Positions 46,542-52,203 of a DNA stretch of 64,000 nt are shown here, piece by piece; within the stretch, counting starts at the first letter, position 1, and each line of letters opens with the position of its first letter. A program made the translations under genes and the position numbers. Origin of the DNA: an uncultured Flavobacteriales bacterium (GTDB lineage: Bacteria; Bacteroidota; Bacteroidia; Flavobacteriales_G; Salibacteraceae); assembly GCA_905479105.1 (NCBI GenBank), contig CAJQLE010000003.1, positions 496,001 to 560,000 on the forward strand, in the 5' to 3' direction. The notes under the pieces were generated by a model. That model had not been told where the DNA came from and did not search any database. It saw only the letters and a list, made by a program, of their open reading frames with translations.

Positions 46542-47261
46542 ATGGAAATTTTTCTTCAACCGGAAGCTTGGATCGCCCTTCTTACACTGACTTTCTTAGA
46601 GATCGTTTTAGGAATTGACAACATCATTTTCATTTCCATTGTCTCGAATAAACTTCCTGAACATCAGCAACCACGAGCTCGAACTATAGGCTTGGCGCTA
46701 GCCTTAGGTGTGCGTATCCTTATGCTCATGGGAATCTCTTGGCTGATCGGGTTGACGGAACCACTCATTACCATTTTCGATATTCCCTTCAGCGGCAGAA
46801 ACATCATTCTGATGGCGGGCGGACTGTTTTTGCTAGCCAAAAGCACTATGGAAATAAGAGATAAGGTAACTGGAGATGAACACGAGCTTACCTCGAAATC
46901 GAAAGCAGTTTCGTTTGCCAACATTATCGCTCAGATAGTGGTGTTAGATATTGTGTTCTCTTTTGACAGCATCTTAACAGCCGTTGGAATGTCCAATGAC
47001 TTGCCTGTTATGATTGCCGCTGTATTGATCGCCATTGTCATCATGATGATTTTTGCTTCGCGCATCAGCGCATTTATCAATGGTCAGCCAACATTGCAAA
47101 TACTCGCCTTATCATTCTTGATCTTGATTGGATTTATGCTGTTGGTTGAAGGCCTTCCAATTGGCAGTGTTCATGTTCCTAAGGGTTATATTTATTTTGC
47201 AGTGTTCTTTTCCTTGTTGGTGGAGGTGATCAATTTGCGGGTGCGGAAGAAAAGGGAGTAA
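46542..47261 (+). CDS. TerC family membrane protein
   Basis: A 239-residue protein with about seven hydrophobic helices and TerC-family motifs: LTFLEIVLGIDNIIFISIVS near the start (the conserved acidic EIVLGIDN) and VVLDIVFSFDSILTAVGMS in the middle (DIVFSFDS). Members such as YkoY and Alx are linked to manganese export or metallation of exported enzymes; tellurite resistance is the historical name. It stands in the accessory segment between a tiny lipoprotein and the large unknown membrane protein. Confidence 0.9.
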   Translation: MEIFLQPEAWIALLTLTFLEIVLGIDNIIFISIVSNKLPEHQQPRARTIGLALALGVRILMLMGISWLIGLTEPLITIFDIPFSGRNIILMAGGLFLLAKSTMEIRDKVTGDEHELTSKSKAVSFANIIAQIVVLDIVFSFDSILTAVGMSNDLPVMIAAVLIAIVIMMIFASRISAFINGQPTLQILALSFLILIGFMLLVEGLPIGSVHVPKGYIYFAVFFSLLVEVINLRVRKKRE

Positions 47262-47414: not shown

Positions 47415-50000
47415 ATGATGTTCATCCACTACCTACTGGCCACAATCGTTGTAATTGCTGTGATTGGCTTTATAGTTTCAAAACTGCTAAATATCGCTAA
47501 TACTAGGTTGTTTGAGATTAAAAATATCACAGACGAATTAACGTCATCAACGCCATGGCTAAAGGCGCTTGCGCCATTGATTACGTTGTTTTATTTACTA
47601 AGTAATTTAATTTTTTGGACCCTTTTTGGATTTGAACAACTGCTAGTTCTTGTCTTGCTGCTAATGGGTTGGGTCAAACAGTTCTTTTTATGGATTTGGC
47701 GAATTATACTTAATCCAACTATTGTCTTTCTCATTAAAATGCTTTGGCACTATCCTGTGGTATTTACATGGAAGTTTACCCGACTTGCATTTTCCCAAAT
47801 CATTCCTTCCATGAGCTTCGGTCACCTCATTTCTGGGGCAATAGCACTATTGAGGTTTCTTTTATTTGTGATACTTCTTTATGTGTGTGACAGCCTAATT
47901 GATCAAACTTGGTTCACCTTCATCGCAGTGCCTTTTATTTCATTCGCAGCAGTCTATACACTTATTACCCTAGGCCTAGTGTTTTCAGAAAGTGAGCATC
48001 TTGTGAACGATCGTAAGGCATTGCTGACTCGGTTTTCAATTTTAATTGTCTTATCGTCCGTAGTTTCCGGAATTTTGTCTGCGCTTTACTTTAATCAGGA
48101 TAAAATAAGTGTGTCAGAATTTGGATTTCCGTTAAGTGAATTTTTGATTCCTGCATTTATCGCTTTATTGTTTATTATATTCATGTCAATTCCGTTCGGA
48201 GTTGCACACTATGTCAAGAACAAGACATTGGGTTCATTTAGTGACTACACTAAGGAGTTGCTTTTACGTTTGCCGAAATTGATTTATTCACTTCCTTTTC
48301 AGACGCTTGGAATGATGTTGGTAATGTTTCTGCCCGCGATTATTTACCTCACATTAGATAGGGGTATTAATCTTGTGACAGGCGCGTCTGTAGATGAACA
48401 TCAATCTAGGGTAGCAGCGTTTAGTGATATAGATAATGACTATTCAACGTTTTCTGATAAAATTGATTTTAATAAAATTCAGATTCTAAAAATAGACTCT
48501 ACACTCATGGCAGACTCCGTCTCTGTAACCTTAGATATTGCTGAATTAAATTTAAGAAAAGAAGTTGTGAATGCCGCAAAATCTAGTTTATCACAAAAGG
48601 AAATCTTTCATCTTGATGACGAATTTTATAGCACTGAATCTCAAATTTTCAGTTTTCCACCAGTACTAAATTGTGAAACTTTTAGTTGGGAAATTGTTGA
48701 TTCTGATGATAAAGTGGTGGCGAGAAAAGACAAAGTTGCAGACGCTGAAAATTCGTCCGTTTTTGTCCACACATGGAAAGAAGCGGGTAGTTATACAATT
48801 ACAGTGATTCCGGAAAATAGCTGTGAAAAAGGAGACCAATATTTCACCCAAGTAATTGTGTCAGAGATGCCATCCCCTCGATCTGAAAAATTGAGGATAA
48901 TAGGCCCTAATTCACTATGCTCTGGCGATACAGTGGTCTACCGGGTAAATGATAGTTATTCTTCATACATGTGGTTGGTTCCGCCAGATGCCAGTATTAT
49001 TGAAGGTATAGGAACCAATAAAATCAATGTTATTTGGGGAACCTCTTCGGGGGTTGTGGCATTAAAGGGTTCGCAAAAAAACGAGTCGAGCTCTAAATAT
49101 TCTATTCTTGAAGTTGCCGTTGTCCCAGGGCTAGATATAGCTGTTTCAGAATCATACGAATACCCAACTGAAGCGGAGGACTTCGTGATTCCAATGCATT
49201 CATTTGCATTTTATGATCTCAACAATGCGAACGATTCACTGCAAAGGCTTGATGAAATGATAGCAGATTTAGAATTGACTTACAAAGAAAAAAGAGAAGA
49301 AACCAGTCTTTATATTTCTGCTCTCCTGCTAGAAATAGATGATTTCGAATCAAGACAATCAGACTTGATTATTTTATGGTTTTCAAATCTATTTGGTATG
49401 ATTGGATTGCTGCTCCTCGCATTACTTTCTATCCCAGCATTCAGTTATTTTTTCAAGTATAATTTTAGTCTATATTCTTTTGAGGAGGATGGTGCGGTTT
49501 ATCTGTTGGAAGAGTTGAATGCTTTGAAAACTAAAGATGAACGTCAACCACTTTTCGGTTGGTTTATTCTTGTTGTAATAGGTGCAGTTTTGACCCTGAT
49601 TTCAGGAGTAACATCATTTGAGTTAAGGATTCCAGAAATAAAAATCATATCTCAAAATTTTGTTCCTCAGCCTGTGGTGTCTGAACCAATTCAAATAGAT
49701 AAATCTAAAATACAGGATTCTACAGCTTATAGAATTCAGGTTTACAGAGGTCAAATTCAGTTTGCAACTGAGTTCCGAGAGAGAATGACTGACTTAGGTG
49801 TTAGCTGTGATTTGGTAGTTAGTAAAGACGAAAGTTACAGAGTATTAACTACCATGACTTTTCCGAATGCGAAATCTGCTTGTGAAGAAGTTGAAATAAT
49901 TAGAGGGCTTAACAAACAATTGGAAGGGTCCTTTGTGGTCACGGATATAGATGGTTTTATTCAAAGTTTCGAAATGGAAAATTGTAAAACGTTTAAATAG
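47415..50000 (+). CDS. Unrecognised large membrane protein with PKD-like and SPOR-like parts
   Basis: An 861-residue protein I cannot name. Residues 5-25, 50-95, 100-190, 203-225, 241-262 and 288-315 are hydrophobic, giving about eight helices. A long soluble part follows: a PKD-like sandwich at about 405-485 (WKEAGSYTITVIPENSC) and a second at about 494-570 (IIGPNSLCSGDTVVYRV, YMWLVPPDASIIEG). A coiled-coil stretch at 605-650 leads to two more helices (652-680, 713-733). The C-terminal 90 residues (AYRIQVYRGQIQFATEFRER...) look like a divergent SPOR domain. It seems monocistronic. It may be a cell-wall-linked membrane sensor or scaffold, which is only a guess. Confidence 0.7.
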   Translation: MMFIHYLLATIVVIAVIGFIVSKLLNIANTRLFEIKNITDELTSSTPWLKALAPLITLFYLLSNLIFWTLFGFEQLLVLVLLLMGWVKQFFLWIWRIILNPTIVFLIKMLWHYPVVFTWKFTRLAFSQIIPSMSFGHLISGAIALLRFLLFVILLYVCDSLIDQTWFTFIAVPFISFAAVYTLITLGLVFSESEHLVNDRKALLTRFSILIVLSSVVSGILSALYFNQDKISVSEFGFPLSEFLIPAFIALLFIIFMSIPFGVAHYVKNKTLGSFSDYTKELLLRLPKLIYSLPFQTLGMMLVMFLPAIIYLTLDRGINLVTGASVDEHQSRVAAFSDIDNDYSTFSDKIDFNKIQILKIDSTLMADSVSVTLDIAELNLRKEVVNAAKSSLSQKEIFHLDDEFYSTESQIFSFPPVLNCETFSWEIVDSDDKVVARKDKVADAENSSVFVHTWKEAGSYTITVIPENSCEKGDQYFTQVIVSEMPSPRSEKLRIIGPNSLCSGDTVVYRVNDSYSSYMWLVPPDASIIEGIGTNKINVIWGTSSGVVALKGSQKNESSSKYSILEVAVVPGLDIAVSESYEYPTEAEDFVIPMHSFAFYDLNNANDSLQRLDEMIADLELTYKEKREETSLYISALLLEIDDFESRQSDLIILWFSNLFGMIGLLLLALLSIPAFSYFFKYNFSLYSFEEDGAVYLLEELNALKTKDERQPLFGWFILVVIGAVLTLISGVTSFELRIPEIKIISQNFVPQPVVSEPIQIDKSKIQDSTAYRIQVYRGQIQFATEFRERMTDLGVSCDLVVSKDESYRVLTTMTFPNAKSACEEVEIIRGLNKQLEGSFVVTDIDGFIQSFEMENCKTFK

Positions 50001-50123: not shown

Positions 50124-50250
50124 TCAACTAAACGGTTAGTCCTGAAAAAAATCGCGATACACATGCTTAGATACAGTTTTGCAACTCACCTTATGGATTA
50201 TGTCACAGACACTAGGGTGATTTAACGTTTGCTAGGACATGTGGGAATGA
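50124..50250 (+). pseudogene. Decayed tyrosine recombinase (integrase) fragment
   Basis: Translation in the frame of 50160 gives KKIAIHMLRYSFATHLMD, then YVTDTRVI, a TAA stop at 50223, and RLLGHVGM. This is the C-terminal catalytic core of a tyrosine recombinase, with the box H-x-L-R-(H/Y)-S-F-A-T-H-L and the LLGH motif, but with an internal stop, no N-terminal part, and no Tyr-containing end. The catalytic His-Arg of HMLR and the His of LLGH persist. It is clearly non-functional and probably marks a lost mobile element or island edge. Confidence 0.8.
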
Positions 50251-50277
50251 TTGTTTAATGACACTTTGAGGATCATA

Positions 50278-50424
50278 TCAACTTCTGCGTTTGTAGACTG
50301 TTTCGTCTCCGGAATTGGCAACTTTCTGAAGCTGCATTCCTCTAGCGGTCATTGTAAATGGATTTTTATGGTTTTGCAAATGCTCTCCGTTTAAAAGTGT
50401 CATCATAAAGAAGTAATAACCCAT
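50278..50424 (-). CDS. Doubtful 48-residue reading frame
   Basis: ATG at 50424 to TGA at 50278 encodes 48 residues, beginning MGYYFFMMTLLNGEHLQNH and ending with a basic tail (DETVYKRRS). The open frame extends 11 codons further upstream to a TAG. It lies next to the integrase relic, so it may equally be the broken end of a larger gene. I recognise no family. Confidence 0.3.
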   Translation of the reverse strand: MGYYFFMMTLLNGEHLQNHKNPFTMTARGMQLQKVANSGDETVYKRRS

Positions 50425-50547: not shown

Positions 50548-52203
50548 TTGCCTACCCACATTGAATTAGAATTTTCAGACCAAGCTTTTGAAGAATGCAC
50601 AGAGAGTGTGATTGTGTCTATCACTGACGTGCACGGTCGACAACAAGAGCGTGTTCGGCTTGGTGTGGTGGATGCGGAAAGTGTGTATAAGAAGATTGAA
50701 GCAAAAGAGCCCGTAACGCTTGACTTGAGGTATGTGAAGGACTTTTCTTTAAAAACATACCGCGAAACGCGTTCGTTGGGCAAGGATGAAGAAATAGAAT
50801 TGCCCGATTTCAGCGCGAGCTGGGCTTATTTTGATGGTATTGAGCCAAAAGATTTCAGCCGTGCTGAGTTTACAGGCACTGTTACAAGTTTTGCTAATTC
50901 ATTGTTTGGCGATGGTCCATTGTCATTTTTCACGGCAAAGTTTAATGCGTCAATGACTGATTTTTCATTGAGTCATTTTGGCGCTGGTGCAGCAAACTTT
51001 CAATATGCTTCGTTTAAGTCAAAGACCATTTCGTTTGATCAGGCCTTGTTTAAAAAGGGAGATATTCATTTTGTAAACTGTGACTTTGGCGATTCTAACA
51101 TTAGTTTTCGCGAAGTAAACTTCGGAATAGGGAAGGTTGATTTTCACTACACGCGTTTTGGGAAAGGATTAATAACCTTCGACAAATCCATTTTTGGAGG
51201 GGGAGAAGTTTCGTTTAAAAGGGTCGACTTTGGCGATGGTAAGGTTGATTTTAAGCGCACTCAATTTGGTGATGGAGAAATTGATTTCTCTGAGGCAGAT
51301 TTCCGATCGGGTAAAGTTATTTTTCGTTCAGCGTCTTTTGGCGATGGAAACATCACGTTTCAAGAAGCAGTATCAACGTCTGACTTCATTTTTGATAATG
51401 CCACGTTTGGAAATGGGAGCTTGTCGTTCTTCAATGCTTCGGCTCGAATGCTCTCTTTTAAACTCTGCCAGTTCAATAATTATGTTGACTTGCGGGTGAA
51501 TGAAGTGGAGAAGTTAGACCTATCAGACACCATTGTTCGCGATATCATTGACCTAATGCCGACTTCCAAAGCACCTGTGCTGATGAAACAAATGGTGTTT
51601 AGCGGCATGCGAAATTTGGGTAATCTCTACATCGATTGGGAGCGCAATGAAGTCCTTAACTTAATTCTTTCCCAAGAAGAAACTTCTCAAAGACAAAAGT
51701 CAGATCAGTTTCTGGTGCTGAAAGAGACTTATAATGCCACAGGAAGGTATAGCGATGAAGATCGAGCATACATTTGGTACAAACGCTATGAGCTGAAAGC
51801 TGACTTAGAATATTCGTTGAAGCATAACCCATCCAGCGCTATTTGGGCTTATCCAACTGCTTTTTTTAAGTGGTTACTCTTCGATAAAATTGGGTTGTAT
51901 GCCACCGAACCATTACGGGTACTTTTTTCGGTTTCCATTATTTATACCCTTTTCAGTCTTTTGTATTTGGTCCTTCCGTTTGTTGCCGATACGTATATAG
52001 ATACCGGTGGAGGAGAAGTGCTGTCTGGTATGAATTCAGTCGCAAAAGCTTTTTACTACAGCGCCATTACCTTCTTGACGATTGGTTATGGAGAATTTTA
52101 TCCGGTAGGCATCATGCGCTTTTTTGCGAGTGTAGAAGGATATGTTGGGGTATTTTTAATGGGGTATTTCTCTGTGGCGTTCGTGAGAAAAGTGTTGAGG
52201 TGA
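50548..52203 (+). CDS. 12-residue-repeat solenoid fused to a potassium-channel pore
   Basis: A 551-residue protein. After an N-terminal ~95 residues, about 15 units of 12 residues run from ~110 to 310 with consensus F-G-x-G-x-h-x-F-x-x-x-x (such as FGDGKVDFKRTQ, FGDGEIDFSEAD), related to but longer than pentapeptide repeats. After a linker come TM1 (about 457-480), a pore loop with the K+ filter TIGYGEFYP (511-519), and TM2 (525-545). The solenoid likely forms a cytoplasmic beta-helix that may gate a tetrameric channel. The start is TTG at 50548, since the frame is closed by TAA at 50533 and the first ATG is far inside. Confidence 0.85.
   Translation: MPTHIELEFSDQAFEECTESVIVSITDVHGRQQERVRLGVVDAESVYKKIEAKEPVTLDLRYVKDFSLKTYRETRSLGKDEEIELPDFSASWAYFDGIEPKDFSRAEFTGTVTSFANSLFGDGPLSFFTAKFNASMTDFSLSHFGAGAANFQYASFKSKTISFDQALFKKGDIHFVNCDFGDSNISFREVNFGIGKVDFHYTRFGKGLITFDKSIFGGGEVSFKRVDFGDGKVDFKRTQFGDGEIDFSEADFRSGKVIFRSASFGDGNITFQEAVSTSDFIFDNATFGNGSLSFFNASARMLSFKLCQFNNYVDLRVNEVEKLDLSDTIVRDIIDLMPTSKAPVLMKQMVFSGMRNLGNLYIDWERNEVLNLILSQEETSQRQKSDQFLVLKETYNATGRYSDEDRAYIWYKRYELKADLEYSLKHNPSSAIWAYPTAFFKWLLFDKIGLYATEPLRVLFSVSIIYTLFSLLYLVLPFVADTYIDTGGGEVLSGMNSVAKAFYYSAITFLTIGYGEFYPVGIMRFFASVEGYVGVFLMGYFSVAFVRKVLR

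What the first reader, a model, noticed from the sequence alone, without database searches (positions are those of the whole stretch)
50548..52203. 12-residue Phe/Gly solenoid fused to a potassium channel pore
Seen: about 15 units of 12 residues (F-G-x-G-x-h-x-F-x-x-x-x) followed by TM1, the filter TIGYGEFYP and TM2. Known: pentapeptide repeats form beta-helices and TIGYG is a K+ selectivity filter; cytoplasmic domains gate many such channels. Inference: a beta-solenoid sensor gates the channel. The 12-residue period differs from the classical five-residue repeat and may define its own class of channel. Sits beside a recombinase relic.
Basis: partly seen in the sequence, partly recalled or inferred. 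Interest (0 to 1): 0.65.

Follow-up and report, generated by a model that had tools for sequence, protein, structure and literature searches.

The report
Pentapeptide-solenoid potassium channel, HalA-like layout
The gene encodes a bacterial potassium channel whose cytoplasmic half is a long beta-solenoid rod; the same layout is found in uncharacterised bacterial and archaeal proteins and in the DNA-gated anti-phage channel HalA, so this is a conserved variant of a barely studied channel type and not a new class.

Summary
A 551-residue ORF (50548-52203, +) carries 15 exact F-x4-F-x6 units, then a helical linker, TM1, the filter TIGYGE and TM2. It is a real gene: intact in 11 of 12 other genomes of its genus, patchy elsewhere in Bacteroidota, under strong purifying selection. 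AlphaFold2 (mean pLDDT 87; solenoid about 95) predicts a four-faced beta-solenoid with 24 residues per turn, so two 12-residue repeats make one turn. The repeat is not its own class: 5 of 12 homologues hit Pfam Pentapeptide_3, Streptomyces pentapeptide-repeat proteins share the 12/24 period, and related channels have 11/22 or 10/20. Pentapeptide-repeat plus Ion_trans_2 fusions occur in haloarchaea, Aeromonas and Bacteroidota, sharing a linker, a pre-TM1 motif Y-[GA]-x-x-P-x-R and an end just after TM2. The top PDB fold match is HalA, the DNA-gated Hailong channel; the HalA family model matches linker and pore of relatives, though not this protein. Best reading: a cytosol-gated tetrameric K+ channel of HalA-like layout, linked to a TerC-family gene; ligand unknown, no nucleotidyltransferase seen nearby. 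New variant of a known, barely studied kind.

The parts
50548..52203 (+). Channel gene, 551 aa, TTG start
   Evidence: ORF; homologues; GTG start at the same place in L004
50548..50847 (+). N-terminal cap, residues 1-100: strands and short helices; least conserved part
   Evidence: AF2 secondary structure; conservation 0.53
50854..51426 (+). Regular beta-solenoid, residues 103-293: 15 units F-x4-F-x6, two units per 24-residue turn, four faces
51427..51633 (+). Degenerate last coils of the solenoid, residues 294-362
   Evidence: AF2 strands to residue 362
51652..51825 (+). Helical linker, residues 369-426, weakly TPR-like hairpin shared with distant channel relatives
51829..51918 (+). Pre-TM1 helix and the motif LYATEPLR, residues 428-457, equivalent of Y-[GA]-x-x-P-x-R in relatives
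   Evidence: conservation 0.90 over residues 441-457
51910..51984 (+). TM1, residues 455-479
   Evidence: hydropathy
52036..52104 (+). Pore helix and K+ filter TIGYGEFYP, residues 497-519; the filter TIGYGE is 52078-52095
   Evidence: T-x-G-Y-G invariant in 17 homologues
52114..52197 (+). TM2, residues 523-550; the protein ends one residue later, so there is no C-terminal cytosolic domain
46542..47261 (+). TerC-family gene (PF03741), directly upstream of the channel in most sister loci and in a second genus; here separated by an insertion
50145..50285 (+). Degenerate tyrosine-recombinase C-terminus with three stops (not part of the channel)

Best explanation
The gene encodes one subunit of a tetrameric, K+-selective, two-TM channel gated from the cytoplasm. 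Residues 1-362 form a pentapeptide-repeat-type beta-solenoid of 24 residues per turn. Residues 369-448 form a helical linker that leads to a pre-TM1 motif (YATEPLR), and TM1, pore and TM2 follow. Because the chain stops right after TM2, the solenoid can pull on the pore only through the linker, the pre-TM1 helix and TM1. The proposed mechanism is that a ligand or partner binding the solenoid moves the four rods and opens or shuts the pore, as reported for HalA, where DNA made by HalB blocks the channel. By gene neighbourhood its job is probably K+ flux or membrane-potential control alongside a TerC-family membrane protein, a family with Mn2+ exporters (own knowledge). Shown here: the gene, its conservation, the repeats, the predicted fold, the pore family, the shared layout and the TerC linkage. 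Inferred: tetramer, K+ conduction, gating by the solenoid, a ligand, and the link to metal export.
For: Solenoid and two-TM pore in a confident model, with strand autocorrelation peaking at 24. Ion_trans_2 above its cut-off and TIGYG/TVGYG conserved in all full-length homologues. Highest conservation in pre-TM1 (0.90) and pore/TM2 (0.84), lowest in the N-cap. Shared linker, Y-[GA]-x-x-P-x-R motif and truncated C-terminus across haloarchaea, Aeromonas and Bacteroidota. HalA 9nyi is the best PDB fold match, E 2.8e-3, probability 1.00. The HalA model NF051894 matches linker plus pore of L066 (179-328 to 204-338 of 338) and the pore parts of L067 and L071, and its positions of about 40-155 match pentapeptide-repeat proteins. 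[quoted passage not shown] TerC lies directly upstream in eight of the loci compared, including G015 where the downstream genes differ.
Against: The window protein itself does not match the HalA model by sequence, and the Foldseek match has low TM-scores (0.25/0.38). Oligomer, conduction and gating are untested. Few polar solenoid positions are invariant (4 of 99), so no obvious ligand site stands out. TerC linkage is absent in the more distant carriers, and the TerC gene itself also occurs without the channel.
Confidence: 0.6

Rival explanations
1. It is a HalA-type anti-phage effector: a nucleotide or oligonucleotide signal made elsewhere holds the channel shut, and phage infection releases it to depolarise the cell.
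For: Same layout as HalA and best fold match HalA.
Against: It sits in a conserved housekeeping neighbourhood (TerC, thrS-infC-rpmI-rplT) across the genus, and no nucleotidyltransferase family was identified among the neighbours examined. No PADLOC match and no HalA-model match in the genome. Presence throughout the genus under strong purifying selection is unlike most defence genes.
Confidence: 0.12
2. The solenoid is a passive scaffold or localisation rod, for example binding other proteins, and the pore is leak-like or gated at the filter by voltage or lipid.
For: Pentapeptide-repeat solenoids often act as rigid binding surfaces (review PMC8145042, for gyrase and SV2C). Surface residues vary more than the core.
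Against: The linker and pre-TM1 region, which would transmit force, is among the most conserved parts, and HalA is reported to be regulated by a ligand through the same layout.
Confidence: 0.2
3. It is a founding member of a separate 12-residue-repeat channel class unrelated to pentapeptide-repeat proteins.
For: The window protein alone has no Pentapeptide hit at E <= 1, and its 12/24 period is distinct from 10/20.
Against: 5 of 12 homologues hit Pentapeptide_3 at up to 3.6e-14. Streptomyces pentapeptide-repeat proteins have the same period. HetL, a solved pentapeptide-repeat protein, superposes at Z 18.3, 2.9 A over 227 residues.
Confidence: 0.04

Closest known systems
HalA, ion-channel effector of the Hailong anti-phage system (PDB 9nyi; NCBIfam NF051894)
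   Same: Pentapeptide-repeat-like N-terminal part, helical linker and C-terminal two-TM pore; best PDB fold match of the model; its family model matches linker plus pore of relatives of the window protein.
   Different: No direct sequence match; solenoid here is longer and 24 residues per turn; no nucleotidyltransferase partner seen; housekeeping location beside TerC and thrS.
Haloarchaeal and Aeromonas 'pentapeptide repeat-containing protein' / 'potassium channel family protein' fusions (L066-L071)
   Same: PF00805 and/or PF13576 plus PF07885 in one protein, same linker, Y-[GA]-x-x-P-x-R motif in most, same abrupt end after TM2.
   Different: Repeat periods 5/10/20 or 11/22 instead of 12/24 where measured; about 25% identity over linker and pore; function untested.
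Pentapeptide_3 (PF13576) proteins of Streptomyces (L064, L065)
   Same: Same 12/24-residue repeat.
   Different: No ion-channel domain hit.
KirBac3.1 and KcsA (two-TM K+ channels of known structure)
   Same: Pore module by sequence, E about 5e-5 to 2e-4 with the family profile.
   Different: KirBac has a C-terminal cytoplasmic domain (own knowledge); here the cytoplasmic domain is N-terminal and a solenoid.

Membership tests
Two-TM K+ channel (Ion_trans_2, PF07885) | Pore model over the curated cut-off | tested here: met
   40.5 bits against 22.5; all 12 members of the alignment match
Two-TM K+ channel (Ion_trans_2, PF07885) | T-x-G-Y-G filter between two helices in homologues | tested here: met
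Two-TM K+ channel (Ion_trans_2, PF07885) | Tetramer that conducts K+ | not testable with these tools
   no complex prediction or physiology available
Pentapeptide-repeat protein (PF13576 Pentapeptide_3) | Profile match | tested here: met
   met at family level: 5 of 12 homologues match, best 3.6e-14, L030 over the cut-off; the window protein itself does not match at E <= 1
Pentapeptide-repeat protein (PF13576 Pentapeptide_3) | Right-handed four-faced beta-helix | tested here: inconclusive
   four faces of about 6 residues in the model; best superpositions are beta-helix proteins and HetL; handedness is not printed by the tools
Pentapeptide-repeat protein (PF13576 Pentapeptide_3) | 20 residues per turn (classical 4 x 5) | tested here: not met
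   24 per turn; but the Pentapeptide_3 proteins L064 and L065 also have period 12/24, so this excludes only the classical subtype
HalA (Hailong effector) | Match to NF051894 over the cut-off (250 bits) | tested here: not met
   no match for the window protein; relatives L066, L067, L071 match weakly
HalA (Hailong effector) | Pentapeptide-repeat solenoid + linker + two-TM pore layout | tested here: met
HalA (Hailong effector) | HalB nucleotidyltransferase encoded next door | tested here: inconclusive
   no nucleotidyltransferase identified among neighbours examined, but not every neighbour was scanned with family models
HalA (Hailong effector) | Gated by oligodeoxyadenylate | not testable with these tools
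   binding experiment needed

The most novel reading that the evidence does not exclude
The solenoid binds a nucleic acid or nucleotide signal, as HalA does, but in a core, non-defence role: a housekeeping, nucleotide-gated K+ channel from which, or alongside which, the anti-phage channel HalA arose.
Probability: 0.12. Interest if true: 0.75.

Novelty: new variant of a known kind. Interest (0 to 1): 0.45.

Why it matters
K+ channels with a pentapeptide-repeat solenoid as the cytoplasmic half occur in archaea and several bacterial groups, but the only member with an assigned mechanism that I found is HalA. A chromosomal member under purifying selection, with a regular 24-residue-turn solenoid and a stable TerC neighbour, makes it testable whether solenoid gating is a general, non-defence channel mechanism, and what such solenoids sense.

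Tried and rejected
Own class of 12-residue channels: rejected. Defence-system membership: no PADLOC match, no HalA-model match in the genome. Phage origin: no match to the Aeromonas linker and pore in annotated phages; one viral contig (L085) has a short pentapeptide plus pore fusion at 29% identity. Direct HalA sequence match through a linker-plus-TM1 profile against the PDB: HalA not listed, only a TPR design and noise. Fold of the linker and pore alone without an alignment: useless, pLDDT 49. VIA-align rows were filled by tailspikes, lyases and other beta-helices, and HalA is not among the 50 rows shown; that says nothing about relatedness. DUF4325 hit of the N-cap (E 0.06-0.16): chance level. 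Literature: no paper found in the held library on pentapeptide-repeat K+ channels; the primary HalA paper is not held. Reading the 98 sampled Bacteroidota genomes with hits as carriers of this family was rejected because nearly all match the pore only.

Full report
WHAT IS THERE. The window holds one ORF of 551 codons at 50548-52203 (+), starting with TTG. A homologue in another species starts with GTG at the same place (L004). Residues 103-293 contain 15 exact units F-x4-F-x6. Identity at lags 12 and 24 is far above 2,000 shuffles: 55 against a mean of 16.1 (maximum 29), and 57 against a mean of 15.1 (maximum 32). Pfam finds only Ion_trans_2 above its cut-off (E 2.5e-10, residues 476-548).

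IT IS A REAL GENE. Homologues of 63-91% identity run the full length and are intact in 11 of the 12 other genomes of the genus; the copy in G010 has three stops. Forty-two genomes of the order were searched: beyond the genus, only G015, G437, G028 and G030 carry it. Two Bacteroidales contigs carry it at about 40% (L030, L031). Against the nearest relative dN is 0.053 and dS about 2.7, near saturation, so dN/dS of about 0.02 is approximate but shows strong purifying selection.

STRUCTURE. AlphaFold2 with 12 sequences gives mean pLDDT 87.3 and pTM 0.77, with about 95 in the solenoid and lower values near the C-terminus. Strands recur with peaks at 6, 12, 18 and, strongest, 24 residues. One turn therefore has four faces of about six residues and uses two 12-residue repeats. 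A helical linker (369-426), a pre-TM1 helix (428-448), TM1 (455-479), pore helix, filter and TM2 (523-550) follow, and the chain ends at residue 551. Hydropathy shows no other membrane segment and no N-terminal one. That the solenoid is cytoplasmic is inferred from K+ channel topology and not shown.

THE REPEAT IS A KNOWN KIND. The window protein alone does not hit a pentapeptide model, but 5 of 12 homologues hit Pentapeptide_3, best 3.6e-14. Streptomyces pentapeptide-repeat proteins found with this protein as query have the same 12/24 period and hit Pentapeptide_3 at 4e-28 or better. Periods form a series: 5/10/20 in L067, L070 and L071, 11/22 in L069, and 12/24 here and in Streptomyces. The solved pentapeptide-repeat protein HetL superposes with Z 18.3, 2.9 A over 227 residues, although many beta-helix enzymes and tailspikes score alike or higher, so this row alone shows the fold and not kinship.

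THE LAYOUT IS ALSO KNOWN, BUT ALMOST UNSTUDIED. Searching with linker plus pore found haloarchaeal plasmid proteins annotated 'pentapeptide repeat-containing protein' or 'potassium channel family protein', and an unannotated Aeromonas ORF. All six carry Ion_trans_2 over its cut-off, and all six carry Pentapeptide or Pentapeptide_3 over its cut-off. More haloarchaeal records and one Nostoc plasmid appear with the Aeromonas query. Aligned, they share a helical linker, the pre-TM1 motif Y-[GA]-x-x-P-x-R (with H for Y, or looser forms, in some) and an end within a few residues of TM2. Position R78 of alignment A2, the arginine of this motif, is invariant. No paper on such fusions turned up in the held library; the main text of the 2021 review of pentapeptide-repeat proteins does not contain the word 'channel'.

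HALA. The top PDB match of the model is HalA (9nyi), E 2.8e-3, probability 1.00, over 429 alignment columns, with TM-scores of 0.25 (query) and 0.38 (target). The tool does not print which residues align. Independent support comes from NCBIfam: the HalA model NF051894 (338 positions) matches Aeromonas L066 residues 179-328 at model positions 204-338 (E 1.4e-3), Halorussus L067 at 235-335 (E 1.4e-6) and Halorubrum L071 at 247-337 (E 4e-4). In 395 Bacteroidota genomes the same model, mostly at positions of about 40-155, picks up proteins of about 200 residues; the five read by eye look like Qnr-type pentapeptide repeats. HalA is thus pentapeptide repeats, then linker, then pore: the same layout. 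The window protein does not match the HalA model itself, so it is not filed as HalA. [quoted passage not shown] The primary paper is not held.

NEIGHBOURHOOD. In eight orthologous loci the match to a TerC-family protein (PF03741) ends 40-136 bases before the channel match begins, and in the genus thrS-infC-rpmI-rplT follow. In G015, a different genus, TerC and the channel are still adjacent while the downstream genes differ. In the window and its two nearest relatives about 2.3-3.3 kb has been inserted between TerC and the channel, with different content in each; in the window this is an 861-residue PKD-domain protein and the recombinase relic. TerC itself also occurs in genomes without the channel. 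In the more distant carriers G028, G437 and L030 no TerC match was found beside the channel. The association suggests a shared role, probably in ion homeostasis; the metal-export role of TerC proteins is own knowledge.

MECHANISM. Shown: layout, predicted fold, conservation and kinship of the parts. Inferred: tetramer, K+ conduction, and gating through linker and pre-TM1 helix. Two facts favour force transmission on the N-terminal side: there is no C-terminal domain, and residues 441-457 are the most conserved stretch (0.90). Only four polar positions of the regular solenoid are invariant (D198, H200, R237, K256), so any ligand site is small, uses backbone or less conserved neighbours, or differs between species.

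VERDICT. Observation confirmed; class claim rejected; gating inference plausible and sharpened by HalA. A new variant (24-residue-turn solenoid, housekeeping setting, TerC neighbour) of a known but barely studied channel layout.

Noticed in passing
window 50145-50285: Stop-broken C-terminal fragment of a tyrosine recombinase (HMLRYSFATHL...RLLGH), Phage_integrase E 7e-6.
   Followed up: partly
window 47415-50000: 861-residue multi-TM protein with a PKD-like domain, inserted between TerC and the channel; no match in sister loci L021-L031 at E <= 1e-5.
   Followed up: partly
L017 1-1677, L018 1-1677, L038-L041, L051, L084: A second Bacteroidota channel type: irregular N-terminal domain without a confident pentapeptide hit where scanned, linker ending in DYGTNP or KYGTSP, a long insert between the first TM and the pore, filter TLGFG or TLGYG.
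   Followed up: partly
L085 2086-3318: Contig in the viral collection with a short pentapeptide plus Ion_trans_2 fusion of 410 aa; whether the contig is truly viral was not checked.
   Followed up: partly
window 50548-52203: PHROG 15350 (494 positions, unknown function) matches the pore near its C-terminus (E 8.6e-5) and PHROG 25690 matches the solenoid (E 5e-28): phage families may hold similar channels.
   Followed up: no
L014 / L078 (G010:C30): The orthologue in G010 is broken by 1 TGA and 2 TAA; pseudogene or assembly error not distinguished.
   Followed up: no
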